From Enterococcus sp. DIV1094 (GTDB lineage Bacteria; Bacillota; Bacilli; Lactobacillales; Enterococcaceae): 64,000 nucleotides of DNA. The notes beneath the pieces are model-generated. The model saw nothing but the letters and a program-made list of their open reading frames with translations, had not been told where the DNA came from and ran no database searches. This document shows, piece after piece, positions 31,183-57,224 of the stretch (positions are counted from its first letter, which is position 1; each line of letters starts with the position of its first letter). The position numbers and the translations under genes are program-made. Location: positions 186,001 through 250,000 of the forward strand of contig NZ_CP147250.1 of NCBI RefSeq assembly GCF_017316305.2, given 5' to 3'.

Positions 31183-31313
31183 AGTATCCCTCCTCATTTC
31201 TAGTTGATAAAATGAGTATACAGTTTGAAAATCGTTCCGGTCGCCCTTCTTTTCTTAAAACTGAAAAAAATGACTTGGGGGGTTCATTAAACATGGCCAA
31301 TACTTTTTAAGTA

Positions 31314-31399: not shown

Positions 31400-32530
31400 T
31401 CAACTATACACTTCTTGTCTATTCCTTCTCGTATAACCATACACTGCCAAACTAAGGAAGAATAGAATATAAATAATCAAGATGAGCATTTCTCTTTGGT
31501 TGCCTTCCCAGGTTTGCCCCGATTGGAAATTTTTGATCATCGTCAAAATCCAATATTGTGGCGTGATCATCGAAACTTTCTGCATGAATTCTGGCATTAC
31601 CTCATGTGGGATCAAAGCACCTGACAGTAAACTGGTAACAGTGATCAAGATGCTTTGTAAAGCCGCTGCAACGTTCGTACTTGATGCGAGTACACCAATA
31701 GCAATCGACCAACCTACCGCTAGTATACTGAATAGGGTCAGTAATAAAATCAAATCAAACGCACTTAACCCAGGATCGATATCGAATAGACCTGTCATGA
31801 CGATGACCGCTAAAATCACTTGGATCAGCATAGCAAACATCGCAAAGATCGTTGTGCCAATAAAATAAGTACTTTTAGCAATAGAAGTAGTCATCAAGCG
31901 TGTATAAATTTTATTCCGTCGCTCTTCTTGGATAGTCGTCGTGCCAAAATTTCCTGCTTGAAATAAAAGCATCATCAATAAAAAGCCGATGATTTGAACC
32001 GACATTTGTTCAGTCGTTGCACTTTGATCTACTTGACGGATCTCGATTTCTGTCGGTTCCTTCAAGCGGTCAAGCAATTCACCTTCTCCTCCTGCTTCTG
32101 CTAATGATTGGATGCTGGCAACCTCTGCTAATGCACGTTGAACTAACCGATCCACATTATTTAGCAGTTCCCCTTTTTGAAATGTCCGTAGAGAAAGTTC
32201 CGGAGTTTCAGAAACATTTTCTTGATACCCCTCAGGAATCGTAATGACTGCCACCGCGTTTTGTCGTGAAAGTACTTGATCGATATCTTCTACCGAGGCA
32301 ATTTTCTGAACAGCCACACGTTTTTCTAAACTCTCAATAAGCAACTCACTGTAGGATGAGCGATCTTGATCCACTACCCCGATCGTCAGCAAATTCGTTT
32401 CTTGATCGCCATAGGCAAAAAGATAAAGTAAGACACTTAAGAAAGGAATCCCGATAAGAAATAAAATTTGTAATGGGCGATTTCGCCAAAGAACGAACCG
32501 TTCTCTAATGACCCAAAAGATATCTTTCAT
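31400..32530 (-). CDS. ABC-2 type permease (second subunit)
   Basis: A 376-aa permease with one N-terminal helix (LQILFLIGIPFLSVLLYLFAYG), a large extracytoplasmic loop (about 40-165) and five C-terminal helices. ERRNKIYTRLMTTSI marks the ABC-2 cytoplasmic coupling region. It belongs to the YhgE/DrrB-like heterodimeric exporter group. Its start codon shares a base with the stop of the upstream permease, so both are made in equal amounts. It is the last gene of an RR-HK-ATPase-permease-permease cluster. The substrate is unknown; lipid-targeting antimicrobials are typical. Confidence 0.85.
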   Translation of the reverse strand: MKDIFWVIRERFVLWRNRPLQILFLIGIPFLSVLLYLFAYGDQETNLLTIGVVDQDRSSYSELLIESLEKRVAVQKIASVEDIDQVLSRQNAVAVITIPEGYQENVSETPELSLRTFQKGELLNNVDRLVQRALAEVASIQSLAEAGGEGELLDRLKEPTEIEIRQVDQSATTEQMSVQIIGFLLMMLLFQAGNFGTTTIQEERRNKIYTRLMTTSIAKSTYFIGTTIFAMFAMLIQVILAVIVMTGLFDIDPGLSAFDLILLLTLFSILAVGWSIAIGVLASSTNVAAALQSILITVTSLLSGALIPHEVMPEFMQKVSMITPQYWILTMIKNFQSGQTWEGNQREMLILIIYILFFLSLAVYGYTRRNRQEVYS

Positions 32531-33630
32531 TAGAATACCTCCCTTTTATCTAAAATAACGACTGACAATGTGAGTAGGACGAGCAATATGCCAACATTCC
32601 CATAAATACCTACCCAATGCAATGGATTATCCGTCCATAGGCTTTCTCTTACTGATGCTAAGGCCCAGCCTAGTGGTGAGAACCTCATCATTGTTTCATT
32701 CGTTGGAAAATATGCGCCTCCTAGAAAGCCAGTCAATTGGATAAAGATCTGCGTTGTGCTAGATCCAATTCTTTTTTCGCCACGATCCCCAACAGTTTCT
32801 AAAAATAGACCTAGTGCTAAAAAACTTCCCATAAGCGCAATGAGATTAAAATAAGAAAAACCAAACCTTAAATACCAAGGTACATCAAATAAAAATTGAG
32901 AAAGGAGCATCAAGAGCAACACGACGCACATCCCAAAAACAAAATGGCCGAAAAATGTCGATAAAATAATTTTTTTACGGCTAAGTGGCGTGACTAATTC
33001 TCTTTGCACCGTTCCATGTTGCCGTGCTTCGCGAAACATGCTTAGTCCAGTTTCAGAAAAATATAATACAAAGAGACTGATCATCGCAATCGCATAATAT
33101 TGGTAAGATGTGGCGGTCTCTCGTTGATTTTCCTGATCGATAACTATCGCATCCGTAAACTGATCAGCTGAAACTAAGCCAGCAGTTGGTGGTAATTGTT
33201 GTTCCATAATGATACTTTGACGTTTGATTTCCTGTACGATTTCTACTAAATAGCTTTGAAGTATCGTTTTTTCCACATTGGACAGTTCCCGACTCTGCAC
33301 CTCGACATGGTCTGAAAAAGACAAGTAGGCATCCGCCGTTTGTTGTCTTATATTCGCTAATCCCTCTTTTTTATTTGCCACTTCTTCAAAATGGATGGTG
33401 CCGTCAGTAAAAGAAGTCACCTGTTGGAAAATTCCCCGAACTTCTGGATCGTCGATTTGATATTGTACAGTCAAGGGTTCTATATCAGATACCAAATCAT
33501 TATTGAACACACCTTGAAGCACTGCCCCGAGAATGAACATCAATGTGATCGGAAAAGCAACAAAATAAATATAATTAGATTTTTCACGTAAACTTTGTAT
33601 CAGGGTTCGAATAATTATTTTTTTATTCAT
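32530..33630 (-). CDS. ABC-2 type permease (first subunit)
   Basis: A 366-aa permease with the same layout as its neighbour: N-terminal helix, extracytoplasmic domain of about 140 aa, then helices with FREARQHGTVQRELVTPLSRKKI as coupling region. The sequence is diverged from the second permease, pointing to a heterodimer. It follows the ATPase by 11 nt. Confidence 0.85.
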   Translation of the reverse strand: MNKKIIIRTLIQSLREKSNYIYFVAFPITLMFILGAVLQGVFNNDLVSDIEPLTVQYQIDDPEVRGIFQQVTSFTDGTIHFEEVANKKEGLANIRQQTADAYLSFSDHVEVQSRELSNVEKTILQSYLVEIVQEIKRQSIIMEQQLPPTAGLVSADQFTDAIVIDQENQRETATSYQYYAIAMISLFVLYFSETGLSMFREARQHGTVQRELVTPLSRKKIILSTFFGHFVFGMCVVLLLMLLSQFLFDVPWYLRFGFSYFNLIALMGSFLALGLFLETVGDRGEKRIGSSTTQIFIQLTGFLGGAYFPTNETMMRFSPLGWALASVRESLWTDNPLHWVGIYGNVGILLVLLTLSVVILDKREVF

Positions 33631-33641
33631 GATCGCTTCTC

Positions 33642-34577
33642 CTAATCTCTTAGCGTGCGTCCAGTCAGACTCAGAAAAACTGTTTCTAGATCCGGCGCTT
33701 GTTGTAATACATCCACTACCCTGACTTCCTGCTTGATCAATAACATCAAAATCTGGTTCAACAATTTACTTTCAAGCAACGTCATGATCTGCAATTGTTG
33801 TTTTTCGAGTGACACATTGATAACTCCATTGATATCACTGATTTCTTGGATATTTAGCAATTCTGGATTCTCCACGGTGATCTGTAGGTTGATTTTATCT
33901 GTTACAAGACTCACTAAATCTTCCTCGCTGCCGAAAGCAATCACTTGGCCTTGATCGATAATGACGATCTCATCTGCCAAACGCGCAACTTCTTCCATGT
34001 AGTGACTTGTATAGATGATCGTCGTGCCGTTTTCTTTCATTTTTTCGATTGCTGATAAGATATAATTCCTAGATTGTGGGTCGATTCCGACCGTCGGCTC
34101 ATCCATGATCAGTAAAGCAGGTCGATGGGCAATCGCCATCGCAATATTCAACCGTCGTTGCATCCCACCAGAAAAAGCACTCGGTCGTTCTTTTCTTCGT
34201 TCATATAGATCAACCGTTCGCAGTGCTTGTTCTACACTATTTTTTAATTCTTCTCCTCTGATTCCATAGAGTCCACAAAAAAAGCGAACATTTTCTTCAG
34301 CCGATAGATCATAATAAATCGCTAGGTCTTGTGGAACCACGCCTAATTTTCTTCTAAGTTCTCTTTTTCGTTCGCTCATCTCTTCTGAAAACAACTGAAC
34401 AGTTCCCGATGTTTTATTCAACAGACCAGTGATCATATTGATCACGGTTGACTTCCCTGCTCCGTTTGGTCCTAACAATCCTAAAATCGTTCCTTCAGGC
34501 ACCTCAAATGATACATTGTCCACAGCAACCTTCTGTCCAAACTTTTTAGTCAATTTTTGCACGCTCAATACATTCAT
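33642..34577 (-). CDS. ABC transporter ATPase (DrrA-like)
   Basis: A 311-aa ATPase with Walker A GPNGAGKS near 36, signature FSGGMQRRLNIAMAIAHRP near 140, and Walker B LLIMDEPTVGIDPQSR. A C-terminal extension of about 90 aa is typical of drug/lipid exporters of the DrrA group. It drives the two ABC-2 permeases downstream. A terminator-like hairpin (34612-34637) lies between it and the sensor kinase gene, so exporter transcription may be attenuated or have its own start. Confidence 0.88.
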   Translation of the reverse strand: MNVLSVQKLTKKFGQKVAVDNVSFEVPEGTILGLLGPNGAGKSTVINMITGLLNKTSGTVQLFSEEMSERKRELRRKLGVVPQDLAIYYDLSAEENVRFFCGLYGIRGEELKNSVEQALRTVDLYERRKERPSAFSGGMQRRLNIAMAIAHRPALLIMDEPTVGIDPQSRNYILSAIEKMKENGTTIIYTSHYMEEVARLADEIVIIDQGQVIAFGSEEDLVSLVTDKINLQITVENPELLNIQEISDINGVINVSLEKQQLQIMTLLESKLLNQILMLLIKQEVRVVDVLQQAPDLETVFLSLTGRTLRD

Positions 34578-34611
34578 CTAATCACTCCTTTCTTATATTC
34601 TATAAAAAAAA

Positions 34612-34637
34612 GAGGAACTGCAGTAGTACAGTTCCTC
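34612..34637 (-). terminator. Terminator/attenuator between kinase and ABC genes
   Basis: GAGGAACTG (34612-34620) pairs with CAGTTCCTC (34629-34637). On the minus strand it is followed by TTTTTTT. It sits just past the kinase stop and before the ATPase start. Confidence 0.8.
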
Positions 34638-34642
34638 ATGAT

Positions 34643-35773
34643 TTATGAATTAGAAATCTCATGTTCTTGCTCAAAAGGTAAAATCGTAGTGATCTGAAAC
34701 CCATTCGTTCCATCAATCAACAATTTACCATTCAACACTGCTGTTCGCTCTTCCATTCCTAAAATACCAAGCCCTTTACGAATGTCTCCTGCACTTGCTC
34801 CATTATTTTTAGATTCAAAGCGCAAAAATTTTTGATAGACATGTAAACGTACCGTTACAGTCGAAGCTTCACTATATTTCAACGTATTCGTTAAAAACTC
34901 CTTCAAATTTGCAGCAATGACTTGCCAGTGGAAGCGACTGATTTTATTTAAAGCGCCACTATATTGAAAATCGACAATGATTTGATGGCTATCGGAGAAA
35001 CGTTGAAGTTCCGCCTTGACTTTATTGATATTGAAAGATTCATTTGTAGGACGTTCATCATGTAAAAGATTGCGCACTTCTTGGATCGATTTTCTTAAAA
35101 TATCACTCGACTGGATCAACAATCGTTGCGCTTGTTCTGGCTGGTTTTTATTAGTGACTTTTGCTGCTTCTAATTGGATCAAACAGCTCGTCAAGTCGTG
35201 CCCTAGATGATCATGTATCTCATGGATGATCCGTTGTCTCTCGACTAATGTTGCTTCTTTTTGCATGACTTCCGCATTCAACGTACTTTGCGAAAAAAGT
35301 TTGGATAACTTGTTTCGTTCGATCCGCAAATAATCCGAAGAAATAGTCAGTTCTTCTTGCTCTTTCGTCATCTTTTCCGCAGACCAAATGATACTGATCA
35401 TCCCACTTACCCACAAAACAAATAAAAAGTACAACGAAGAAGAAAGAAAGAAACTCCCCACACTATAACTGATCAACCCTATAAATAAAAGCAACCACGG
35501 TTTTTCCAAACAAAAATAGCCTTGTAGCAGAGAAAGTGGCAACAAAAAAATCACTTGTTCGACAAAAATCAAACTTAACAAAACGCTGATCAATTGCAAA
35601 ACAACAAACCAAGGACGATAACTTTGAAAGCTTTCGCCTAAGAAGAATAGTGCTAACCATGCCATACTTAAACCAATCACGAACATCAATGTTTGTGAAG
35701 AGGTTTGATCGATCGTCAGTCCGATCAAGCCAATGATCGACAACAAATTGATCGATAATCTGATTGCTTGCAT
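34643..35773 (-). CDS. Sensor histidine kinase (HisKA_3/NarX-DesK type)
   Basis: A 376-aa kinase with six or so N-terminal membrane helices (about 5-135), a short coiled coil, the H-box RIIHEIHDHLGHDLTSC (phospho-His near residue 185) and an HATPase domain with NLKEFLTNTLKYS (N-box) and KGLGILGMEER (G-box). There is no large extracellular sensor, so it probably senses membrane stress or the partner transporter. It abuts the response regulator directly. Confidence 0.9.
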   Translation of the reverse strand: MQAIRLSINLLSIIGLIGLTIDQTSSQTLMFVIGLSMAWLALFFLGESFQSYRPWFVVLQLISVLLSLIFVEQVIFLLPLSLLQGYFCLEKPWLLLFIGLISYSVGSFFLSSSLYFLFVLWVSGMISIIWSAEKMTKEQEELTISSDYLRIERNKLSKLFSQSTLNAEVMQKEATLVERQRIIHEIHDHLGHDLTSCLIQLEAAKVTNKNQPEQAQRLLIQSSDILRKSIQEVRNLLHDERPTNESFNINKVKAELQRFSDSHQIIVDFQYSGALNKISRFHWQVIAANLKEFLTNTLKYSEASTVTVRLHVYQKFLRFESKNNGASAGDIRKGLGILGMEERTAVLNGKLLIDGTNGFQITTILPFEQEHEISNS

Positions 35774-36406
35774 CTATGTCATTACCTCGCCAGTGAGAAC
35801 GTAGATCGCTAGTTGTGTGCGATGATCCAAGTTCAATTTTTTTAAAATCATTGAAAGATTATTATGGACAGTTCCTTCGCTTAAAAATAGTGTTTGCGCG
35901 ATCGCTTTATTCGTCATACCTTTTGCGACTAAATGGGCGATCTCTTGCTCGCGCTCTGTTAATACAGTTAGATTCGCTTCTTGATTGTTCTTCTTGTCTA
36001 AGTGTTGTGTTGCTTTCACAAGGATTTCTTTTGAAAGGATCGTTTGTCCTTGTAACACACTTTTAATTGCTTGGATCACTGCTTCTGGAGGAGTTGTTTT
36101 TAAAAGATAACCACTCGCACCATTGCGTATTCCTTCATCTATGTAGCGATCTTCATCAAAAGTAGTTAGAATAATGACGGGTATCTGGTATTCTTCCGTG
36201 ATCTGCTTCGTAGCAGTAACGCCATCCATTCCCGGCATACGCACATCCATCAATACGATATCCACTTGGTTTTCTTTACAAAATTGAATGGCTGAATCCC
36301 CCTCATGACAAATCCCAACCACTTGAAAGTCTGCTGCACTTTCTAATATGATTTTCAAGCCACTTGTAATCAGCGCACTATCATCTACTAATAAAATTTT
36401 TGTCAT
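35774..36406 (-). CDS. NarL/LuxR-family response regulator
   Basis: A 210-aa regulator with a receiver domain (phospho-Asp54 in IVLMDVRMPGMDG; LTTFDED with the conserved Thr; KT near 103) and a C-terminal LuxR helix-turn-helix (LTEREQEIAHLVAKGMTNKAIAQTLFLSEGTVHNNLSMILKKL). It is first in the operon and most likely controls the ABC exporter. The surface-protein array starts 290 nt upstream on the same strand, so a wider regulon is possible but unproven. Confidence 0.9.
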   Translation of the reverse strand: MTKILLVDDSALITSGLKIILESAADFQVVGICHEGDSAIQFCKENQVDIVLMDVRMPGMDGVTATKQITEEYQIPVIILTTFDEDRYIDEGIRNGASGYLLKTTPPEAVIQAIKSVLQGQTILSKEILVKATQHLDKKNNQEANLTVLTEREQEIAHLVAKGMTNKAIAQTLFLSEGTVHNNLSMILKKLNLDHRTQLAIYVLTGEVMT

Positions 36407-36697: not shown

Positions 36698-39409
36698 TTA
36701 TACCATCGTTTCATTATCTTTCTTACGTTTCAGCCAACTTGCTAGAGCGGTACCTACCGCACCAAAGCCTAACAATGCAAAAGCACTAACTACTTCACCT
36801 GTATTCGGTAATTTACCACCTCTGCCAGTACTAGTCGCTGCAGCATTAGTGCCCGAACCATTGCCGCTTCCCCCATTTGGAGTTGTACCAGGTTGATTGT
36901 TCCCAGGTGAATTATTACCGGAAGGATCACCAGCGTTATTCCCAGTATTTCCACCAGGTCCTCCGTTTCCGCCATTCCCACCATTACCACCTGAACGCGC
37001 TGTGGTAAGAACGATTGGGTCAGATTCTTCCCCTGCTGAAAAGTTCGTACTCTCGTCTGAAATAGCAGTAATCCAATAGCTCGTATTAGGACTTAATCCC
37101 ACAAACGCCCCATCCACCGCGGCTATCCCATCTGCATAAGCAACTACTCGTGCAAGAGGATTAGCTTGAGGGTCCGTATCATAGATCAGGAAAGTCACAT
37201 CTTGAAGCAACTCCTCTGCATGGTCATGGTACCAATCTTCACCAGGTGTATCTGGTGTATCATCATGATGAAGCAGCGCTGTCCCTGCAATCGTGATCAC
37301 TTCATGCGTATTGTTTTGTGCTGCTAGTTCTTCGTCAATTCTCAAGTAAGCCCCAGCTGCTTTTGTAATCGCTTCGACTTCAAAGAGATCCTCAATCAGG
37401 TAGGTATCCTCTCCGTTAGTTGGTAAGCTTGTTACATCATAATTAGAAAGATTGATCGTTCCCCAATCAAGTGTCCAGTTTGCCCCTTCGATCGTATTTG
37501 TGCCCGCAACACTATCTTTATATTTGAAGTCTTCTTCTATCCAAGTCGCTTCATCGCCTGGCGCTAAGCCAGTCAGTGTTGGCGCATCAAAACGATCGAT
37601 GTTTGTCGTTCCATTGAATGAACGAGCAAAAACCGTCCCTTTTTCTAGCGTAATTTCAGCTGGAGTAACTTCTACAGTTGCTTTATTCCAATGCTGTCCA
37701 GGTTCTAGCACAGTCAGACGTCTGAGTGGTGTAGCAGTAATTTCATAAGTGCCAATACTTGTCACCTCTAAAATCAAATATTGACCATCATCTGAGAGAC
37801 GGAACCCATCTGCATCTGTTCCAAAAAGATAATCAGCAGGATTGCCACCACGTCCAAATACAGAGAACGCATCAGAAAGGAGAACTTTTGTCTCTCTTCC
37901 ACCATATGGAACTTCGATCGTTTCACCTAATGCATCAATCGGTAACGTATCGACTTCATTACCTATTCCTAACTTAGGATAATTTGTCGTAGTATCCCAT
38001 ATCCAAGTACTACCGAAATCCCATCCATTGGATTTATAGGTACTTTGTGTTCGTAATTCAATGACATCTAACGGTTCGAGAACATCTGGGGTGATTTTGC
38101 CCTCCACACGTTCTCCACCGGCTAACACTTTGGAATTATTATAGTAATAACTATGAATACTATAATTTTCTATATTGAAATGGTGGACATTTGTCTCTCC
38201 AATGACATCCCCCATCGCGTAGCTATTCTTTGGCCTATAAGAATTAGATTTTCCGACAAATCCGCCAACAAAATCGACCCCAACGACATGCCCAGTGCTA
38301 TAGCTCCGAGCGACCTCCTTCGCAAGAGCCTGGATCTCTCCGATAAAACCACCAACCTTATTTATTCCAGTGACATCGCCAGTCGCATAAGAATCAACCA
38401 CTGTACCACCAAAATAATTTGTTCCAATCAATCCGCCATGGCCCTCGCCTCCTGAGCTAGTGACATTACCTGTCGCATATGAACGACTGACATGCCCATA
38501 ATGATTATAGCCAATCAAACCGCCGACATTGTGCACATTAGCTGTTACATGACCAGTTGCGTAACTATCGACTACAGTATTTCCATTGTAGCCAATCAAA
38601 CCGCCGACAGCCTGATTAGTGTCATTTACATCCCCATTAACTGTAACTGTCGCAGAAGATGAGGAACGAATCACAGCGGTACCATAAGTATTAATCGGTA
38701 TAAATCCGACTAGCCCCCCTACATAGGTACTACTAGCTTCAATACTTCCACCAATAATAGCAGAATCAGTGACAGTTGTTGGTCTCGTTGCATCACTGAT
38801 TCTGCCAATCAATCCACCGGTAGCACCTCCGCTGCCTCCTCCGATGACAAGTGGATTTTCTAATGTGATTCCGGAAATTCTTGCACCCTCAGTCACGCCA
38901 AAGAACCCACGATTGTCTTCATCACCTGATTGTACGCCCGTAGTCACTCTCATATTACGAATAACTGTTCCACGCGTGGCTATAAAACTTCCTGTGAATT
39001 TTGTTGCTGAAGTTGTCCCATAGCCCACAGGAATCCAGTCTGAAGTTAACGTGATATCATTCATCAATTGGTAGTGAGCGGTTAAATCATTTCTCATTTC
39101 ATTTAATTGAGCTTCAGTGGTGATTTGGAATGGAGAGTCGATAGAACCATTACCTCCCCCTGAAAATAAAGGTTCAATAGCCATTCCATTTGTCTCATCG
39201 AATTCTTCAGACAGTGAGAACTGATCTTCTAACCGATCTGTCGCTTCCTCTTGAGCGGTTGCTTTACCCGGTACACCACTACCACTTTCTGTTTGACTTA
39301 CCATCTCATCATTCTCTAAAGTGTTCGCAAAAGTTGGTACTGTTTGTGCCAACAACATAGAACTCAGAAGGATATTTGCAATCAGTTTTTTCTTACTCAA
39401 CTTAACCAT
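36698..39409 (-). CDS. LPxTG surface protein with GLUG repeats, paralog 1
   Basis: A 903-aa cell-wall-anchored protein. In order: signal peptide (about 1-28, KLSKKKLIANILLSSMLLAQ); acidic linker; 'QLMNDITLTSDWIPVGY' lead-in; five or more GLUG units (VGGLIGYN.., DSYATGHVT..); a YDG-like domain (VTPAEITLEKGTVFARSFNGT); a highly conserved C-module (IDEELAAQNNTHEVITIAGT, LLQDVTFLIYDTDPQ); a Gly/Asn-rich wall spacer; then LPNTG (about 867), hydrophobic segment and charged tail. Sortase A should attach it. I chose the ATG at 39409 with AAGGGTGG at 6 nt. It is the most diverged of four tandem paralogs. Adhesion or matrix building is likely; the ligand is unknown. Confidence 0.88.
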   Translation of the reverse strand: MVKLSKKKLIANILLSSMLLAQTVPTFANTLENDEMVSQTESGSGVPGKATAQEEATDRLEDQFSLSEEFDETNGMAIEPLFSGGGNGSIDSPFQITTEAQLNEMRNDLTAHYQLMNDITLTSDWIPVGYGTTSATKFTGSFIATRGTVIRNMRVTTGVQSGDEDNRGFFGVTEGARISGITLENPLVIGGGSGGATGGLIGRISDATRPTTVTDSAIIGGSIEASSTYVGGLVGFIPINTYGTAVIRSSSSATVTVNGDVNDTNQAVGGLIGYNGNTVVDSYATGHVTANVHNVGGLIGYNHYGHVSRSYATGNVTSSGGEGHGGLIGTNYFGGTVVDSYATGDVTGINKVGGFIGEIQALAKEVARSYSTGHVVGVDFVGGFVGKSNSYRPKNSYAMGDVIGETNVHHFNIENYSIHSYYYNNSKVLAGGERVEGKITPDVLEPLDVIELRTQSTYKSNGWDFGSTWIWDTTTNYPKLGIGNEVDTLPIDALGETIEVPYGGRETKVLLSDAFSVFGRGGNPADYLFGTDADGFRLSDDGQYLILEVTSIGTYEITATPLRRLTVLEPGQHWNKATVEVTPAEITLEKGTVFARSFNGTTNIDRFDAPTLTGLAPGDEATWIEEDFKYKDSVAGTNTIEGANWTLDWGTINLSNYDVTSLPTNGEDTYLIEDLFEVEAITKAAGAYLRIDEELAAQNNTHEVITIAGTALLHHDDTPDTPGEDWYHDHAEELLQDVTFLIYDTDPQANPLARVVAYADGIAAVDGAFVGLSPNTSYWITAISDESTNFSAGEESDPIVLTTARSGGNGGNGGNGGPGGNTGNNAGDPSGNNSPGNNQPGTTPNGGSGNGSGTNAAATSTGRGGKLPNTGEVVSAFALLGFGAVGTALASWLKRKKDNETMV

Positions 39410-39660
39410 AAAAACCCACCCTTTCATTTCTAACTATTTTTTAATTAACAACATTATTATCTCATAAAATAATAATAAATTGAATTTTTTAGCTGTTTTA
39501 AAGCTTATTATAATTAGATAACTCTAATTATATAATAACATTTTTATATTTATTTATTATGTGAATTTTCAAATTTCATCGTAGTGATTTAGGTTAGTGC
39601 CTCTGCAATAATTTAATAACGAATGATATTAAAACATCATAATGTTCATCCCCACTCATT
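39410..39660 (-). promoter_or_regulatory. Promoter module of surface gene 1
   Basis: The upstream region is clearly related to those of genes 3 and 4. It contains the 16-bp palindrome ATTAGATAACTCTAAT (39513-39528), lying 104 nt from the ATG, AT-rich -10-like sequences beside it, a conserved AGCTAAAAAATTCA on the minus strand, and CGAATGATATTAAAACATC further up (near 39621). The rest of the 532-nt gap up to 39941 holds the terminator of gene 2 and nothing else I can recognise. Confidence 0.6.
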
Positions 39661-39922: not shown

Positions 39923-39941
39923 TCATTCTTCAAATTATCGT

Positions 39942-42899
39942 TTAATTATTTTTCTTACCTTTCAACCAACTAGCCAAAGCTGTACCGACCGCACCAAAGC
40001 CAAGCAGTGCAAACGCACTTGCTACTTCACCTGTCTTCGGTAAATTACCACTTCTGCCATTACTTCCGGCCGATGCAGCATTCGTAGGAACACTTCCGTT
40101 ACCACTTCCAGAAGTATTTACACTTCCAACATTTGGAGTAGGGGTAGTTCCAGATTGATTGTTCCCTGGCTGATTATTGCCAGTTTGATTGTTTCCTGAA
40201 GGAGCGCCAATGTTATTTCCTGTGTTTCCTGTATTTCCACCGGTTCCTCCGTTATCTCCACCATTATCTCCATTTCCTCCGTTTCCTCCATTATCTCCTG
40301 AAAGTGATGTAGTAAGCATGATTGGGGCAGATTCTTCCCCTGAGCTAAAATTCGTACTCTCATCTGAAGTCGCAGTGATCCAATACGTGGTATTCGCACT
40401 TAACCCTACAAATGCCCCGTCTACTGCTGCTACGCCATCTGCATAAGCAACCACTCGTGCCAATGGATTCGCTTGTGGATCTGTGTCGTAAATCAAGAAG
40501 GTCACATCTTGAAGTAACTCCTCTGCATGGTCATGGTACCAATGCTCACCCGGTGTATCCGGTGTCTCATCATGATGAAGTAGCGCTGTACCCGCAATCG
40601 TAATCACTTCATGGGTGTTGTTTTGTGCCGCTAACTCTTCATCGATTTTCAAGAAAGCTCCAGCTGCTTTGATGATTCCTTCGACCTCGAATAAGTCGGT
40701 CACTTTGTACTCACCATTTTCATCTGCTGATAAACCAACGACTTCATAGTTTTCTTGATTCACGGTTCCCCAATCAATCTGCCAACTATCCCCTTCGATC
40801 GTGTTCGTTCCAGCAATAGGATCAGTGAACTGGAATACCTCTTCCTGCCAATTGATTTCGTCACCTTCAATTAAACCCGATAATGTTGGACGTTCAAAAT
40901 CAAGGATTTCTCTTGTTCCATTAAATGTTTGCTCAAATACCCTGCCTTTTTCCACAGTGATTTCAGCTGGAGTCACTTCAATCGTTGCCCTACCCCAGTT
41001 TTGTCCGGGTTCTAATGTGGTTAAACGTCTCAACGGAACCGCAGTGAGTTCATAAACACCCACACTGTCAATCGCCATGATCAAGTCATTGCCATCTTCG
41101 GAAATACTGATTGCTCCGCCACTCGACTCAATAAGAAAATCTTCAGGATTGCCGCCTCGACCAATCAAAGAGAAGACTTTTGCCAATGGAATGCGCGTTT
41201 CTGGTCCACTATACGTCACTTGAATCGTTTCTCCTAGCGCATTCATTGGTAATGTATCGACTTCATTACCTAATCCTAACTTGGGATAGTTTGTTTCAGT
41301 ATCCCAGAGCCAAACCGAGTTGAAATCCCAGCCATTCTTGCTATAGGTCGTTTGCGTACGTAACTCGATGACATCAACCGGTTCAAGTATACCAAGATCA
41401 TCTGGTAGTTGTTCAGGAACAGCCCCACCGTCTAAAACTTTTGCAAGATGATAGTAGTAATTATTTACCTTATTTCCTTCACCACCACCAAAAACATCAA
41501 CATTCCCAGTTCCACTAACATCGCCCATTGAATAACTATTTTGAATGGTAGTTGCTCCCAAAGCTCTACCTACGAAGCCCCCAGTATAATTTGTGCCGAT
41601 AACATTTCCTGTACTATAACTTCGCTGCGTCTCAAGAACGCCACTATCGATCATCCCCACGAGCCCACCTGTATTTTCATTTCCGTTTACATTCCCGGTG
41701 GCATAAGAATCGTAGATAGCTGCATCAGAATCGTTTAAACCGATAAGTCCACCTGTATAGTCACCACTACTAGTGACATTTCCTGTCGCATAGGAACGAG
41801 TGACCCTTCCACCAGAATTGTTACCAATCAAACCACCTGTATTCACCTGGGTACTTGTCACATCTCCAGTAGCATAACTGTCGATTATTTGCCCGCTAGT
41901 ACTTACGCCAAGCAAGCCACCTACTCCTTGACTTCTGATTGAATTAAACCTAATACTAGCGGAAGAAGAGGAACGAGAAACAATACTGGCTCCTGCGTAA
42001 CCAATTAAACCACCAATAAAACCATACATCGTTGATTCGATGCTTCCGCCAATAATCCTAGAATCACTCACTCTAGTAACAGAATCGGTAGAATCTCTGA
42101 CACGTCCGATCAATGCCGCAGTTCCAGCACCATCTCCTGCCACAACTCGCGGATTTTCAATAGTGATTCCAGAAATCGTAGCCCCATCGGTTGTCGCAAA
42201 AAGACCTCTATAGCCTTGCCCTGACACGGTATCAGACGAATTAGCCGTAATCGTTAAATTCCTGATCACAGTGCCAGGTTCAGCGGTCAAACTGCCTCTA
42301 AAATTTCTATTTACAGCGTCAAACGACGTAGAATAATAACCGACAGGAATCCACGCTGAAGTTAATGTAATGTCATTCATGATTCTATAATGCGCTGTCA
42401 GATCCGCTCGCATTTCATTCAACTGTTCTTCATTCGTTATTTGATAAGGTGAAACAGCTGTTCCTTCTCCTACACCCGTAAACCTTGAACTGATCGAAAT
42501 TTCTTCCAAATCTTCGTTCTCTTCTTGCGACTCAGCTATTGGTTCGGCAAACGTTTCTGCTTCATCCATCTCAGGTAAGTCTGCCTCTTCCGGTTCATCA
42601 GACAAAGATAAAGGTTTTTCTGGAAATGGTTCTTCTGCGTTTTCCTCAGTTTCTACCCTGATATCGCTCGCATCTTCCAAAGCCTCTATCTCATTGGATT
42701 CAACCTCATTATCCATGATTTCATCTTTAAGATTTTCTATTTCATCTAACTCTTCGACTGTTTCCTCATTTTCAGCTACTGGGTGATTCATTGGATCGAC
42801 ACTATCTAAAACACTTGCAAATGTCGGTGCAGTTTGTGCTAACATCATCGAACTTAAAAGTACACTTGCAAGCAGTTTTTTCTTGTTCAACTTCCTCAT
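39942..42899 (-). CDS. LPxTG surface protein with GLUG repeats, paralog 2
   Basis: A 985-aa protein with signal peptide (KLNKKKLLASVLLSSMMLAQ), a very acidic N-terminal region (about 30-135; Glu/Asp-rich), and the lead-in RIMNDITLTSAWIPVGYY. GLUG repeats (about 220-450: GGLIGYAG, DSYATGDVTS, GGLIGNNS, RSYATGNVTS), a YDG-like domain, the conserved C-module, a Gly/Asn spacer and LPKTG (953-957) follow. Start ATG 42899 has AAGGTGG at 7 nt. It lacks the promoter module seen before genes 1, 3 and 4 and lies 185 nt after gene 3. Its 3' end is nearly identical in DNA to gene 3. Confidence 0.88.
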   Translation of the reverse strand: MRKLNKKKLLASVLLSSMMLAQTAPTFASVLDSVDPMNHPVAENEETVEELDEIENLKDEIMDNEVESNEIEALEDASDIRVETEENAEEPFPEKPLSLSDEPEEADLPEMDEAETFAEPIAESQEENEDLEEISISSRFTGVGEGTAVSPYQITNEEQLNEMRADLTAHYRIMNDITLTSAWIPVGYYSTSFDAVNRNFRGSLTAEPGTVIRNLTITANSSDTVSGQGYRGLFATTDGATISGITIENPRVVAGDGAGTAALIGRVRDSTDSVTRVSDSRIIGGSIESTMYGFIGGLIGYAGASIVSRSSSSASIRFNSIRSQGVGGLLGVSTSGQIIDSYATGDVTSTQVNTGGLIGNNSGGRVTRSYATGNVTSSGDYTGGLIGLNDSDAAIYDSYATGNVNGNENTGGLVGMIDSGVLETQRSYSTGNVIGTNYTGGFVGRALGATTIQNSYSMGDVSGTGNVDVFGGGEGNKVNNYYYHLAKVLDGGAVPEQLPDDLGILEPVDVIELRTQTTYSKNGWDFNSVWLWDTETNYPKLGLGNEVDTLPMNALGETIQVTYSGPETRIPLAKVFSLIGRGGNPEDFLIESSGGAISISEDGNDLIMAIDSVGVYELTAVPLRRLTTLEPGQNWGRATIEVTPAEITVEKGRVFEQTFNGTREILDFERPTLSGLIEGDEINWQEEVFQFTDPIAGTNTIEGDSWQIDWGTVNQENYEVVGLSADENGEYKVTDLFEVEGIIKAAGAFLKIDEELAAQNNTHEVITIAGTALLHHDETPDTPGEHWYHDHAEELLQDVTFLIYDTDPQANPLARVVAYADGVAAVDGAFVGLSANTTYWITATSDESTNFSSGEESAPIMLTTSLSGDNGGNGGNGDNGGDNGGTGGNTGNTGNNIGAPSGNNQTGNNQPGNNQSGTTPTPNVGSVNTSGSGNGSVPTNAASAGSNGRSGNLPKTGEVASAFALLGFGAVGTALASWLKGKKNN

Positions 42900-42994
42900 A
42901 GAAAATCCACCTTTCAAATTATGATTTAAATCATTATTCACCTAATAAAAATAAGAGAGGCAAGTGAAATAAAACAGAAAACTACTCGAAAAAA

Positions 42995-43108: not shown

Positions 43109-43125
43109 ACTTTTCAAATTATCGT

Positions 43126-46091
43126 TTAATTATTTTTCTTACCTTTCAACCAACTAGCCAAAGCTGTACCGACCGCGCCAAAGCCAAGCAGTGCAAACGC
43201 ACTTGCTACTTCGCCTGTCTTCGGTAAATTACCACTTCTGCCATTACTTCCGGCTGATGCAGCATTCGTAGGAACACTTCCGTTACCACTTCCAGAAGTA
43301 TTTACACTTCCACCATTTGGAGTAGGGGTAGTTCCAGATTGATTGTTCCCTGGCTGATTATTGCCAGTTTGATTGCTTCCTGAAGGAGCGCCAATGTTAT
43401 TTCCTGTGTTTCCTGTATTTCCACCAGTTCCTCCGTTGTCTCCACCATTATCTCCATTTCCTCCGTTTCCTCCATTATCTCCTGAAAGTGATGTAGTAAG
43501 CATGATTGGGGCAGATTCTTCCCCTGAGCTAAAATTCGTACTCTCATCTGAAGTCGCAGTGATCCAATACGTGGTATTCGCACTTAACCCTACAAATGCC
43601 CCGTCTACTGCTGCTACGCCATCTGCATAAGCAACCACTCGTGCCAATGGATTCGCTTGTGGATCTGTGTCGTAAATCAAGAAGGTCACATCTTGAAGTA
43701 ACTCCTCTACATGGTCGTGGTACCACTGTTCACCAGGTGTATCTGGTGTCTCATCGTGATGAAGAAGGGCAGTACCCGCAATCGTAATCACTTCATGGGT
43801 GTTGTTTTGTGCCGCTAACTCTTCATCGATTCTTAAGAAGGCACCTGCTGCTTTGACGATTCCTTCGACCTCGAATAAGTCGGTCACTTGGAAATTATCA
43901 CTTTCATCAGCTAATACACCAACGACTTCATAGTTCTCTTGATTTACGGTTCCCCAATCGATTCGCCAATTATCACCAGTAATCGTATTTGTCCCCGCAA
44001 TGCTGTCAGTATATTGGAATAGCTCTTCCTGCCAAGCGATTTCGTCGTCTCCGACTACCCCTGATAAGATTGGAAGATCGAAGTCAGTCACTTCCGTTGT
44101 ACCATTAAAAGTACGTTCAAATACTCTTCCTTTTTCTACTGTAATTTCAGCTGGCGTTACTTCAATCGTTGCTTTCCCCCAATTTTGTCCGGGTTCTAAT
44201 GTCGTTAAACGACTTAAAGGAACCGCAGTGATTTCGTAAATTCCTACACTGTCGATCGCCATGATCAAGTCAGTTCCATCTTCGGAAATACTGATCGCTC
44301 CGCCATCCGACTCAAAAAGGAAATCTTCAGGATTGCCGCCTCGACCAATCAAAGAAAACACTTCCGCTAAAGGAATGCGCGTTTCTGAACCACCATAAGT
44401 TACCTGGATCGTTTCACCGATCGCATTGATTGGTAACGTATCGACCTCAGTTCCTAAGCCTAATTTAGGATAATTCGTTTCTGTATCCCAGACCCAAACG
44501 GAGTTGAAATCCCAAACATTCTCGATATAGGTCGTTTGCGTGCGTAACTCGATGACATCAAGAGGCTCAAGTTTACCCATATCATTCGGTAGTTGTTCCG
44601 GGGCTACTCCACCGTATAAAACTTTCGCAAGATGATAATAGTAATTATTAACGATAGTTCCGCCTACACCAAAAACATCGACATTCCCAGTTCCACTCAC
44701 ATCTCCCATTGCAAAACTGTTTCGGATCCTAACTGATGCTCCAGACACTCTGCCTACAAAGCCTCCTGTGTAGTTTGTCCCAACGACATTCCCTGTACTA
44801 TAACTTTGTGCAACTTCAATTACCCCAGTATCGAGCATTCCAACTAATCCACCAGTATATCTACTACCTTGTACATTCCCTGTAGCATAAGAATCATAGA
44901 TAGATGCCGTATAAGAATTTCCTCCAATAAGGCCGCCAGTGTAATCACCACCACTAGTTACGTCTCCGGTTGCATACGAACGCTTGATCGTTCCACCAAG
45001 ATTATAGCCAATCAACCCTCCTGTATGTGCTCGGTTACTAGTTACATTCCCTGTAGCATAGCTATCGATGATTTGACCACGACCACTTACTCCAATCAAG
45101 CCACCTGTTCCTTCACTTGTTGTTGCAGCTAACGTAACAGTAGCTGAGGAAGAGGAGCGAGAAACAATACTATATTCGGAGTAACCAATCAACCCTCCAA
45201 TATATCCCTGTACGGTCGACTCAATATTCCCACCAATAACCTTAGTATCACTCACCATTGTAACAGCATTTGGCGAATCGATCACACGTCCGATTAACGC
45301 ACCTGTTCCAGCACCGTCTCCCGCAATAACATTTGGATTTTCGATAGTGATTCCAGAAATCGTCGCACCATCAGTTGTTGCAAAAAGCCCTCTATACCCT
45401 CGAGTCGCTGCTGTATCCGGTGAATTAGATTTGATCGTTAAATTTTTGATCACAGCACCAGGTTCAGACGTCAAACTACCTCTAAAATTTCTATTTATAG
45501 TATCATACGATGTAGAATAATAGCCGACTGGTATCCACTCTGACGTTAAGGTGATATCATTCATAATTCTATAATGCGCAGTCAGATCGTCACGCATGGC
45601 ATTCAGCTGTTCTTCATTTGTGATTTGATAAGGCGAGACAGCTGTTCCGTCTCCTACACCGGTAAATCTTGAACTGATCGAAGCCTCTTCTAAGTCTTCG
45701 TTCTCTTCTTGCAACTCAGGCATTTCTTCGACCAGTATTTCTACTTCATCACTTTCAGACAAGTTTGTTTCTGCCAGTTCGTCAGACGAAGGTAGCAAAT
45801 CCTCTGCTAGCACTTCTTGTTCGATTTTCTCAGTCGCTACCACTATATTGCTCTCATCATCTAGAATATCTGGTTCATTTGATGACACCTCTTCATCTAT
45901 GATTTCATCGATAAGATTTTCCATTTCATCTAATTCTTTAATTCTTCAATTGTTTCCTCTGCTTCAGTGACTGTGTGATTGATTGGATCGATATCTTCTA
46001 AAACGCTTGCAAAAGTCGGTGCTGTTTGTGCGAACACCATCGAACTTAACAGCACACTTGCAATCAGTTTTTTCTTGTTCAGCTTAACCAT
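43126..46091 (-). pseudogene. LPxTG surface protein paralog 3, frameshifted by 8-bp tandem duplication
   Basis: Translation from the ATG at 46091 (AGGTGG at 6 nt) gives the paralog signal peptide MVKLNKKKLIASVLLSSM and then 53 residues, ending at a TAG at 45930. The remaining 932 codons are open in another frame from 45924, with GLUG repeats, YDG-like domain, C-module and LPKTG. The cause is a perfect duplication of TAATTCTT (45931-45938 and 45939-45946). Deleting one copy restores a 985-codon gene, the same length as paralog 2. The internal ATG at 45924 has no signal peptide, so the downstream frame cannot yield an anchored protein. The rest looks intact, so the lesion is recent or reversible. 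Confidence 0.88.
45931..45946. repeat. 8-bp tandem duplication causing the frameshift
   Basis: Two adjacent perfect copies of TAATTCTT. Paralog 2 has a single copy of the corresponding codons (GAAGAGTTAGATGAA region). An 8-bp step shifts the frame, and slipped-strand mispairing could add or remove a copy. Confidence 0.85.
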
Positions 46092-46330
46092 AAAAAACCA
46101 CCTCTTATTTTCTAATTATATTTTAATTTATATGCACATTATCTCATAAAACTTTCTTTAAATGAATTTTTTTACTGTTTGAAAAGCTTTTTGTATTAGA
46201 TAACTCTAATTATATTATAACCTTTTGTTTTTTATTTCATTACGTAATCGTTAATATTTAATCGAAAAGATTTTAGCCTTTCGTTACTTGGAAATAGGAA
46301 AACATGCGATATTAAAACATTGTTATATTT
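46092..46330 (-). promoter_or_regulatory. Promoter module of surface gene 3
   Basis: ATTAGATAACTCTAAT (46195-46210) is identical to the gene 1 motif and again 104 nt from the ATG. The distal conserved CGATATTAAAACATTG lies near 46317. The remaining gap to 46735 is AT-rich, with partial similarity to the region upstream of gene 4 and no ORF I can support. Confidence 0.6.
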
Positions 46331-46813: not shown

Positions 46814-49669
46814 TTAATTCTTCTTACGTTTCAGCCAACTAGCTAACGCTGTGCCTACCGCACCAAAGCCAAGCAATACGAATGTACTCGCTACTTCACC
46901 AGTTTTCGGTAAATTACCACTTCTGCTATTATTTCCGGCTGATGCAGCATTCGTAGGAATACTTCCATTACCATTTCCAGAAGTATTCACACTTCCACCA
47001 TTTGGAATCGTCCCAGTTTGATTGTTCCCTGAAGGAGCGCTGATATTATTTCCAGTGTTTCCGGTATTTCCAGTATTTCCGCCGGTACCTCCATTGCCCC
47101 CGTTATCTCCACCATTATCTCCGTTTCCTCCATTGTCTCCTGAAAGTGACGTAGTAAGAACGATTGGATCCGATTCTTCCCCTGCGTTAAAGTTCGCACT
47201 CTCATCTGAAGTTGCAGTGATCCAATACGTGGTGTTGGCACTTAAACCTACAAATGCGCCGTCTACTGCCGCTATCCCATCTGCATAAGCAACCACTCGT
47301 GCCAATGGATTCGCTTGTGGATCTGTGTCGTAGATCAAGAAGGTCACATCTTGGAGTAATTCCTCTGCATGGTCATGGTACCACTGTTCACCAGGTGTAT
47401 CTGGTGTATCGTCGTGATGAAGAAGCGCTGTTCCCGCAATCGTGATCACTTCATGGGTATTGTTTTGTGCCGCTAGCTCTTCGTCAATTTTCAAGAATGC
47501 ACCATTTGCTTTTGTAATTGCTTCTACATCAAAAATATCGGTGACAAGGTACTCGTCAGATCCAATAGTGGGCAATCCTGTAATAACGTAGTTGGAGTTG
47601 TCGATCGTTCCCCAATCAAGTGTCCAGTTTGCTCCTTCAATCGTATTTGTGCCAGCAGCACTATCCGTATACTGGAAGTCTCCTTCTATCCAAGTCACTT
47701 CATCTCCTGGCGCTAGCCCACTTAACGTTGGTGCATCAAAATGATCGATTCCTGTCGTCCCATTAAAGGCACGAGTATAGACCGTTCCTTTTTCTAGAAC
47801 AATTTCTCCTGGAGTGATTTCAACGATTGCTTTATTCCAATTCTGTCCAGGTTCTAACGTAGTCAGACGGTTGATTGGTGTAGCCGTAATCTCATAGGTA
47901 CCAATACTCGTGATCTCCAAAATCAAATAGTCGCCATCATCTGAAAGACTGACCCCATCCGCATCTGTTTCAAAAAGGTAATCTTCTGGATTTCCTCCGC
48001 GACCAAATAAAGAAAATGCCTCAATGAGCGGAATCCTTGTTTCTGCTCCACCATACGGAACTTGAAGCGTTTCGCCTAACGCATCGATCGGTAACGTATC
48101 GATTTCGTTACCTAGTCCTAACTTAGGATAATTAGATGCAGCATCCCACACCCAAGTACTACCGAAATCCCAACCATTCGCTTCATAAGTACTTTGTGTT
48201 CGTAATTCAATGACATCTAACGGCTCAATAACGTTTGGGGTAACTTGCCCACTCACTAGCATACCTTGAGAGCGCACTTCAGCATTATTATAGTAGAAGT
48301 TATTGCTATTCGTACCACCTAAGCCAAAATGGTCTACATTCGAATCTCCCGTCACATCACCCATTCCGAAGCTATTTTCGATAGTCAAATTATCAGCGTT
48401 ACCGATAAATCCACCGACATAACTAGTACCAACTACGCTTCCTGTACTATAGTTGCGTGCTACTACGGTATTGTATGAATAAACTGCTCCGATGAACCCA
48501 CCGACATTCTCTCGTCCAATAACATCTCCTGTCGCATAAGAATCCACCACTGTACTATAGAAATCCTGCCCACCGATCAAACCACCAATGTTATCATTAT
48601 CTTGACCATCGACATTTCCTGTGGCATATGAACGACGAACGACGCCCAAGCTATTTAAACCAACCAAGCCACCTGTATTGGTTGCGTTTGCTGTGACATT
48701 GCCTGTCGCATAACTGTCCACTACTACATTCCCATTTATTCCGATCAAACCGCCCACTGCTTGAGGGTACATGTTAGGATTCGCATTTACTGTGATCGTT
48801 GCTGAAGAAGAAGAACGAAGAACCATAGTACCAGAGACCCTATTCGCCATGTAGCCAACGAGCCCACCAACACTCCCACCAGTCGCTTCGATAATTCCAC
48901 CACTGATAGCAGAATCAGTGACGGTTGTTGGATTCCCAGATTGATCGTTGATTTGTCCAATCAACCCTCCAGTATTGAGCCCATTCAGCCCGCCCACAAT
49001 GTGCGGCTTTTCCAAAGTGATCCCTGAAATCGTTGCGCCATCTACTACACCAAAAAATCCTCGATTGCTCACATCACCAGCTTGCGCACCAGAGTTAACT
49101 CTCACATTATGGATAACTGTCCCAGGTTCAGCTGTAAAACTTCCAGTGAATTTTGTCGCTAAAGTTAATCCATATCCAACTGGTATCCACTCTGAAGTTA
49201 GTGTGATATCATTCATCAATTGATAATGCGCCGTTAAATCATTTCGCATTTCATGTAATTCAGCTTCAGTAGTGATTTGGAATGGTGCGCTGATCGAACC
49301 ATCACCCGCTCCAGAAAAGTATGATTCAATCACCGTTTCATTTTGCTCTTCCATTTCTTCCAACAATGTCTGCTGCTCTTCAATCAGCTGTTCGGTTGTC
49401 TCTACTGTTTCTTGGTCAATGTCTTCAGGAATGGTTTCCACATTACTTGCTTCTTCCAGAACCTCTAATTCGTCGGGTGCCACTTGATTAATCAAAGTCT
49501 CATCGTTACTATTTTCTATTTTTTCATCTATTGACTCTGCTTCAATCACAGTTTTCCTGTTTGGATCACTCTCTTCTAAAGCGCTTGCAATAGTAGGCGC
49601 TGTTTGCGCAAATACCATCGAACTTAAAAGCACACTTGCCATCAGTTTTTTCTTGTTCAACTTAACCAT
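46814..49669 (-). CDS. LPxTG surface protein with GLUG repeats, paralog 4
   Basis: A 951-aa protein with signal peptide (KLNKKKLMASVLLSSMVFAQ), an acidic region with many Glu residues (about 30-110), lead-in QLMNDITLTSEWIPVGYG, and GLUG repeats (GGLIGINGN, DSYATGNVTA, GGLVGLNS, RSYATGNVDG). It continues with a YDG-like domain, the conserved C-module, a Gly/Asn/Asp spacer and LPKTG (about 920-924) with charged tail KRKKN. The ATG at 49669 has AAGGCGG at 6 nt. Its GLUG and YDG portions resemble paralog 1 more than 2 and 3, while the extreme C-terminus resembles 2 and 3, so the four are mosaics. Confidence 0.88.
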   Translation of the reverse strand: MVKLNKKKLMASVLLSSMVFAQTAPTIASALEESDPNRKTVIEAESIDEKIENSNDETLINQVAPDELEVLEEASNVETIPEDIDQETVETTEQLIEEQQTLLEEMEEQNETVIESYFSGAGDGSISAPFQITTEAELHEMRNDLTAHYQLMNDITLTSEWIPVGYGLTLATKFTGSFTAEPGTVIHNVRVNSGAQAGDVSNRGFFGVVDGATISGITLEKPHIVGGLNGLNTGGLIGQINDQSGNPTTVTDSAISGGIIEATGGSVGGLVGYMANRVSGTMVLRSSSSATITVNANPNMYPQAVGGLIGINGNVVVDSYATGNVTANATNTGGLVGLNSLGVVRRSYATGNVDGQDNDNIGGLIGGQDFYSTVVDSYATGDVIGRENVGGFIGAVYSYNTVVARNYSTGSVVGTSYVGGFIGNADNLTIENSFGMGDVTGDSNVDHFGLGGTNSNNFYYNNAEVRSQGMLVSGQVTPNVIEPLDVIELRTQSTYEANGWDFGSTWVWDAASNYPKLGLGNEIDTLPIDALGETLQVPYGGAETRIPLIEAFSLFGRGGNPEDYLFETDADGVSLSDDGDYLILEITSIGTYEITATPINRLTTLEPGQNWNKAIVEITPGEIVLEKGTVYTRAFNGTTGIDHFDAPTLSGLAPGDEVTWIEGDFQYTDSAAGTNTIEGANWTLDWGTIDNSNYVITGLPTIGSDEYLVTDIFDVEAITKANGAFLKIDEELAAQNNTHEVITIAGTALLHHDDTPDTPGEQWYHDHAEELLQDVTFLIYDTDPQANPLARVVAYADGIAAVDGAFVGLSANTTYWITATSDESANFNAGEESDPIVLTTSLSGDNGGNGDNGGDNGGNGGTGGNTGNTGNTGNNISAPSGNNQTGTIPNGGSVNTSGNGNGSIPTNAASAGNNSRSGNLPKTGEVASTFVLLGFGAVGTALASWLKRKKN

Positions 49670-56277: not shown

Positions 56278-57224
56278 ATGAATAAATCTGAAGAACGAAA
56301 CTTAATCAAAGTTGCTACCCTTTATTACAAAGAAGGTTTGACACAAGTCGAAATATCAAAGAAAATGGGCGTTTCTCGATCCTTGATTTCAAAATGGTTA
56401 GTTGCTGCCAGAAATCAAGGATTCATTGAATTCTTCTTCAATAGCGAAGAAGTTTATTCCGTCAATCTAGAAAATCAATTGGAAAAAAATTTGGTTTAAA
56501 ATCAGCTACTGTTATCGATACAAATAATTTATCTACTTCTGAGATCAAAAAATTGCTCGGTCAGACAGCCGCCTTATCGATCAAAAATAAAATCGAGACA
56601 GTCCATTCGATTGGACTGTCTTGGGGGAAATCAATCCAAGCATTAGTCTCACAATTTCCATTTGAATCTTATCAAAATAAAGTGTTTATTCCCCTGATTG
56701 GTGGAATGGGTACAGATAATTTTGAAGTTCATTCGAATCATCTATGTTATGAATTTGCGAAAAAAACACGAAGCTCATCTAAATATTTATATGCACCCGC
56801 TTTGATCAATGATCCCTCTGCAAAAAAAGTGCTGGAGAACAATCAAAACATCAAAGAAGTGTTGGAAGAAGCCAAACATGTTGATATGGCAATCGTCAGC
56901 ATCTCTTCCCCGCAACACAGAAATACGATGCAAGACATGGGGTATATTACAGATAAAGATATCGCTGAGCTTCTTGAACTGAATATCGTTGGTGATATCA
57001 ATTCTCGCTTCTTCGATAAACAAGGAAAAGAAGTCAATCACTTATCAAATACCAATGTGATCGGTATCAGCATCGAAGACTTAAAGAAAATTCCACAAGT
57101 GATTGCCATTGCATATCAAAAAGAAAAGTGGTCAGGGATTTACTATGCGTGTATCAATCATTTGATTACTGATTTGATAACAACTGATGAGATCGCGAAT
57201 GAGATTTTGAATGCAGAATTGTAA
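56278..57224 (+). pseudogene. SorC-family transcriptional regulator with -1 frameshift in an A7 tract
   Basis: From the ATG at 56278 (AAAGGAG at 6 nt) the N-terminal helix-turn-helix is clear: LIKVATLYYKEGLTQVEISKKMGVSRSLISKWL. After LENQLEK the frame runs to a TAA at 56497. The other frame is open across the junction as KKFGLKSATVIDTNNLSTSEIK and continues through the sugar-binding domain (HSIGLSWGKSIQALV, VFIPLIGGMGTDNFEVHSN, VGDINSRFFD, VIAIAYQKEKWSGI) to 57224. The break is in GGAAAAAAATTTGG (56481-56494), where one extra A would restore a 315-aa protein, the normal SorC length. Transcriptional slippage at A7 could partly rescue it; a sequencing error is possible. Confidence 0.82.

What the first reader, a model, noticed from the sequence alone, without database searches (positions are those of the whole stretch)
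45930..46091. 8-bp tandem duplication switches surface gene 3 off right after the signal peptide
TAATTCTT is perfectly duplicated and shifts the frame at codon 51 or so. Removing one copy gives 985 codons, identical in length to paralog 2, and no other lesion is seen. A slippage-driven switch that blocks export would be an on/off contingency locus; a simple recent mutation is the alternative.
Basis: partly seen in the sequence, partly recalled or inferred. Interest (0 to 1): 0.75.

Follow-up and report, generated by a model that had tools for sequence, protein, structure and literature searches.

The report
Surface gene broken by small duplication
In an unnamed Enterococcus, one of four neighbouring cell-surface protein genes is cut off just after its export signal by a recent 8-letter DNA stutter; it looks like an ordinary loss mutation, and nothing yet shows that it is an on/off switch.

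Summary
TAATTCTT stands twice in tandem at 45931-45946. The minus-strand gene starting at 46091 ends as a 53-aa peptide; the rest is one clean 932-codon frame to 43126 with an LPKTGE end. The octamer is derived: gene 2 lacks exactly these 8 bases, and a near-identical protein on an unnamed contig, P0001, runs through. So one small duplication silenced gene 3, probably recently.

The switch reading is not supported. Two copies is the minimum. One perfect octamer pair in 64 kb is what chance gives (1.29 expected). None of six aligned family N-termini keeps it. Four short relatives are known as proteins only; three end elsewhere, one (P0122) close by. A second window gene has lost its frame at a poly-A run. 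No reads could be examined, so switching is untested.

More interesting is the array: four tandem GLUG/LPXTG genes beside a two-component system and an ABC transporter, a 777-base tract nearly identical between genes 3 and 2 (23 differences, against 494 of 2152 outside), and P0001, which looks recombinant.

The parts
45931..45946 (-). perfect 8-bp tandem duplication (TAATTCTT x2 on the + strand)
45947..45954 (-). imperfect third copy CAATTGTT (6 of 8), a possible slippage partner
   Evidence: its role is inference
45930..46091 (-). 5' piece of gene 3: 53 codons with signal-peptide-like N-terminus, then TAG
   Evidence: signal peptide judged by eye
43126..45924 (-). 3' piece of gene 3: 932-codon frame, GLUG repeats, LPKTGE anchor-like end
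46098..46148 (-). upstream stretch of gene 3 with TATGAGATAAT element and AGAGGTGG ribosome-site-like sequence, kept
   Evidence: function is inference
43113..43889 (-). tract nearly identical to gene 2 (40705-39929): 23 differences in 777 aligned bases; probable gene conversion
39942..42941 (-). gene 2, intact paralog (MRKLN start at about 42899)
46814..49669 (-). gene A, intact paralog upstream of gene 3
36698..39427 (-). gene 1, intact paralog
31400..36406 (-). neighbouring module: LuxR-type response regulator, HisKA_3 kinase, ABC ATPase, two ABC-2 permeases

Best explanation
Gene 3 is one of four tandem paralogs for large wall-anchored GLUG proteins in an Enterococcus close to E. mundtii. 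A single recent replication-slippage event at a weak, imperfect 8-bp repeat in the acidic linker behind the signal peptide duplicated 8 bases. The frame is lost, a 53-residue stub is made, and the rest of the protein is either not made or, if translation restarts at 45924, lacks its export signal. This is an ordinary loss allele in a redundant, recombining gene family. Shown: duplication, frame loss, intact homologue, paralogs, near-identical tract. Inferred: slippage, lack of product, recency, no evolved switch, repeated loss in the family.
For: Exactly 8 extra bases relative to gene 2, none of the other five aligned N-termini has the repeat, and P0001 departs from the stub at residue 52 and follows the downstream frame. 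Downstream frame open over 932 codons. dN/dS of 0.21 against gene 2 over 931 codons. Octamer count at chance level. Short relatives P0122 (65 aa), P0123 (230), P0124 (379) and P0009 (603) with ends at four different points. The family's copy number varies: four genes in the window, two in E. mundtii N55263, one in G029, and matches at E 1e-30 in 2 of 105 Enterococcaceae genomes, as expected of a dispensable family.
Against: No reads were available, so a mixed population cannot be excluded. A two-copy duplication can revert by the same kind of event, and reversible duplications are described for pneumococcal capsule genes (passages of PMC4243769). P0122 leaves its family sequence 5 alignment columns from where gene 3 does (columns 71 and 66), which could hint at a favoured spot; but that search could only return proteins of about 29-93 aa, and its DNA was not seen. 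dN/dS mostly reflects the time before the lesion. The short relatives may be contig ends or assembly faults.
Confidence: 0.72

Rival explanations
1. True phase variation: slippage between one and two octamer copies turns export of this surface protein on and off at high frequency.
For: Exact two-copy duplication, frame-shifting unit length, position right behind the signal peptide, a surface gene, intact homologue P0001 with near-identical N-terminus, third imperfect copy next to it.
Against: Two copies only; chance-level repeat; absent from 6 of 6 other aligned N-termini; three of four short relatives end elsewhere. The review section read here asks for reversibility and a minimal rate without selection (PMC11868660 section 6); neither is shown.
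Confidence: 0.1
2. Selected loss: OFF alleles of these surface proteins are favoured in some hosts or in culture, so independent lesions of many kinds recur, without a switching device.
For: Four short relatives ending at different points, two of them in clusters of 12 and 72 member sequences.
Against: Short forms may be contig ends or assembly faults; no phenotype; the same pattern follows from relaxed selection in a redundant family.
Confidence: 0.25
3. Assembly or sequencing fault: the strain really has one copy.
For: A second gene in the window has a frame break at a seven-A run, a usual error place.
Against: An exact 8-bp duplication is not a homopolymer error; the window's contig is listed at 3,269,646 bases, which suggests a finished assembly.
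Confidence: 0.1

Closest known systems
Reversible spontaneous sequence duplications in pneumococcal capsule genes (serotypes 3, 8, 37)
   Same: a duplication inside a frame silences a surface trait; reversible in principle
   Different: there reversibility is described (cited in PMC4243769, passages only; the original papers were not seen); here only one genome is seen. That those duplications are mostly longer is recalled.
Simple-sequence-repeat contingency loci (Haemophilus, Neisseria, Campylobacter)
   Same: slippage at a tandem repeat near the 5' end of a surface gene
   Different: those usually have many copies (recalled; repeat number sets the rate, passages of PMC11868660); here two copies at chance level
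Group A Streptococcus mga 8C/7C tract
   Same: a slippage mutation removes a surface protein; reversion not shown without selection (PMC11868660 section 6)
   Different: mga acts through a regulator and a homopolymer
Recombining surface-gene arrays with silent copies (neisserial pilin type)
   Same: paralogs with a near-identical tract and a mosaic homologue
   Different: no known expression locus or dedicated sites; three paralogs look intact, each with its own upstream region

Membership tests
phase-variable locus | switch lies in a genetic change at a single locus | tested here: inconclusive
   one 8-bp insertion separates the window allele from homologues at this point, but no switching was seen
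phase-variable locus | reversible switching without selection | not testable with these tools
   no reads or passages; criterion from PMC11868660 section 6
phase-variable locus | minimal rate, about 1 variant in 100,000 colonies without selection | not testable with these tools
   criterion
SSR contingency locus | repeat tract beyond what composition gives | tested here: not met
   1 perfect octamer pair in 64 kb, 1.29 expected; 2 in 89.5 kb of relatives
SSR contingency locus | repeat kept in relatives at the same place | tested here: not met
   0 of 6 other family N-termini aligned as DNA, five of them with a shorter linker; the P0001 protein does not show it either
LPXTG wall-anchored surface protein | signal peptide, LPXTG, hydrophobic stretch, charged tail | tested here: met
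   seen by eye in translations of the intact paralogs, and for gene 3 in its two pieces; no signal-peptide program was run and Pfam reported only GLUG above its cut-off
array with silent donor cassettes | recombination between array members | tested here: met
   777-base tract, 0 of 1000 column shuffles reach its score; P0001 mosaic
array with silent donor cassettes | silent copies feeding an expression locus | not testable with these tools
   needs expression data and population sequences

The most novel reading that the evidence does not exclude
The four-gene array is a diversification system: frameshifted members such as gene 3 persist as silent but sequence-preserved cassettes that exchange segments with expressed neighbours by gene conversion, while a small reversible duplication sets which member is silent. 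The adjacent two-component system and ABC transporter would control or sense the array.
Probability: 0.07. Interest if true: 0.65.

Novelty: new member of a known kind. Interest (0 to 1): 0.22.

Why it matters
If only a loss allele, it is ordinary, and a reminder that a perfect short repeat in a broken surface gene is not by itself a switch. If the array reading held, it would give a surface-diversifying locus in the E. mundtii group that is directly testable, since clonal read depth at one site and long-read comparison of strains would decide it.

Tried and rejected
Own-genome search: no whole genome is held for this window. Genome-contig scan: 62 stretches matched, 1 locus, E. mundtii N55263. 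Species-level genomes: matches at E 1e-30 in 2 of 105 Enterococcaceae genomes, one genome a species, so same-species strains could not be read as DNA; the DNA around P0001 and P0002 was out of reach. Plasmid collection by protein: 20 records, all under 60% identity and none covering 80% of the query. Viral contigs: 7 stretches matched a pattern, none a relative. Literature: no paper holds DIV2371; of 15 papers listed for at least two of E. mundtii, GLUG and LPXTG, none holds both E. mundtii and GLUG (listing only); the other searches gave listings that I did not use further apart from three papers seen as passages or one section: PMC4243769 (passages), PMC11868660 (passages and section 6), PMC12817950 (passages: copy-number changes of longer promoter repeats called phase-variable; different unit size and place). 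Solved structures: 3 weak matches, chains of IgA1 protease, over residues 200-338 of gene A, E about 3e-4. A structure job had not finished after nine collecting calls, so nothing rests on it. Programmed frameshifting was considered and dropped for want of the repeat in homologues. A longer reading of a UvrA-like gene in E. mundtii (793 against 747 codons) was checked as a possible third break and looks like a difference in upstream start. Limits: the comparison of window genes with relatives covered about 24-57 kb of the window and listed the best hit of each ORF only; protein lengths of about 94-136 and 439-512 aa were covered by none of the three protein searches, and one search listed 120 of 3530 hits.

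Full report
What was checked. The octamer TAATTCTT stands twice in tandem at 45931-45946 on the + strand, and Tandem Repeats Finder extends the array to 45955 with an imperfect third copy. The gene runs on the minus strand from 46091. Its first frame gives 53 residues and stops at 45932-45930. The continuing frame is open from just inside the duplication (upstream stop at 45948-45946), its first ATG is at 45924, and it runs 932 codons to 43126 without a stop.

What the gene is. By position it is the second, in the direction of transcription, of four tandem paralogs: A 46814-49669, gene 3, gene 2 39942-42941, gene 1 36698-39427. All four carry GLUG motifs (Pfam PF07581, E 5e-20 to 2e-7). The intact ones start with a signal-peptide-like stretch and end in LPKTGE or LPNTGE, a hydrophobic stretch and a charged tail (by eye). 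The array lies beside a LuxR-type response regulator, a HisKA_3 kinase and an ABC transporter of one ATPase and two ABC-2 permeases. The same module is in E. mundtii N55263 (G001) with two surface genes and in G029 with one; the 19.5-kb stretch fetched from G033 does not hold it. The host is an Enterococcus close to E. mundtii: a 1.9-kb ABC-F-type gene is 87-88% identical to G001, G029 and G033, and gene 2 is 98% identical to a protein of Enterococcus sp. DIV2371 (P0002). Relatives of the surface protein were found at E 1e-30 in 2 of 105 Enterococcaceae genomes.

Is the duplication derived? Yes, on the present evidence. In a DNA alignment of seven family N-termini (window A, 3, 2, 1; E. mundtii 1 and A; G029 A) gene 2 differs from gene 3 by a gap of exactly 8 bases there; the other five have a longer gap, because their linker is shorter, and none has the repeat. 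The nearest protein, P0001 (976 aa, 3 member sequences, one unnamed 20,561-base contig), matches the stub in residues 1-51 with one difference and then continues in the frame that the downstream piece of gene 3 uses. So an intact homologue of this N-terminal type exists. The lesion looks young: no second break in gene 3, and dN/dS between gene 2 and the downstream piece is 0.21 over 931 codons, which mostly speaks of the time before the lesion.

Is it a switch? Nothing here shows one. Perfect 8-bp tandem pairs number 1 in this window against 1.29 expected and 2 in 89,502 bases of relatives' loci. The review section read here (PMC11868660 section 6) asks for reversibility and a minimal rate and warns about chance tracts. 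Four shorter relatives from unnamed, E. mundtii-like sources are in the protein database: P0122 (65 aa, 1 member sequence, 6,468-base contig) leaves the family sequence 5 alignment columns past the point where gene 3 does; P0123 (230 aa, 12 member sequences) and P0124 (379 aa, 2) do so farther on, each with an unrelated tail; P0009 (603 aa, 72 member sequences, longest contig 917 kb) simply ends short. Their DNA was not seen, and some may be contig ends or assembly faults. The searches covered lengths of about 29-93, 137-438 and 513-1631 aa, so P0122's closeness is partly a product of the search. On the other side, a two-copy duplication can revert, and reversible duplications are described for pneumococcal capsule genes (cited in PMC4243769, passages).

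Other breakage. A second gene of the window, a regulator with a sugar-binding domain (SorC-type, name recalled) at about 56278-57224, is open over 315 codons in E. mundtii but changes frame here at a seven-A run. Two frame breaks of different kinds within the compared part of the window, about 24-57 kb, fit ordinary mutation or sequencing faults better than one special device.

Recombination. Genes 3 and 2 share a 777-base tract (43889-43113 and 40705-39929) with 23 differences, against 494 of 2152 outside; 0 of 1000 column shuffles reach its score. The likeness falls off just past the stop codons. P0001 matches gene 3 in 459 of 468 residues over alignment columns 51-550 (gene 2: 345 of 484), but gene 2 in 246 of 250 over columns 551-800 (gene 3: 209 of 250). 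So array members of this group exchange sequence, or have been fused. The direction and the timing relative to the lesion are unknown.

Mechanism. Most likely slippage at a weak repeat (the imperfect third copy gives the partner) duplicated 8 bases. The stub carries the signal peptide. Five bases separate the stop at 45932-45930 from the ATG at 45924, so restart is possible, but that product has no export signal. The upstream element TATGAGATAAT and a ribosome-site-like sequence are kept, so the gene may still be transcribed. All of this paragraph is inference from the sequence.

Verdict. Observation confirmed, interpretation partly supported: an ordinary, probably recent loss allele in a recombining surface-gene family, with phase variation possible but unshown.

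Noticed in passing
43113-43889 and 39929-40705: Near-identical tract between surface genes 3 and 2, 777 aligned bases with 23 differences, probable gene conversion.
   Followed up: yes
about 56278-57224 +: Sugar-binding-domain transcription regulator that changes frame at a seven-A run; E. mundtii has an open 315-aa form.
   Followed up: partly
31400-36406 -: Two-component system plus ABC-2 transporter goes with the surface genes: present in G029 and E. mundtii N55263, not in the 19.5-kb G033 stretch.
   Followed up: partly
46148, 39466, 49726 (minus strand): TATGAGATAAT lies upstream of genes 3, 1 and A and nowhere else in the window; perhaps a shared promoter element.
   Followed up: no
30130-31197 -: 355-aa protein beside the module with no Pfam match at 1e-5, only 49-63% identical in three close relatives, lower than most of its neighbours.
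   Followed up: no
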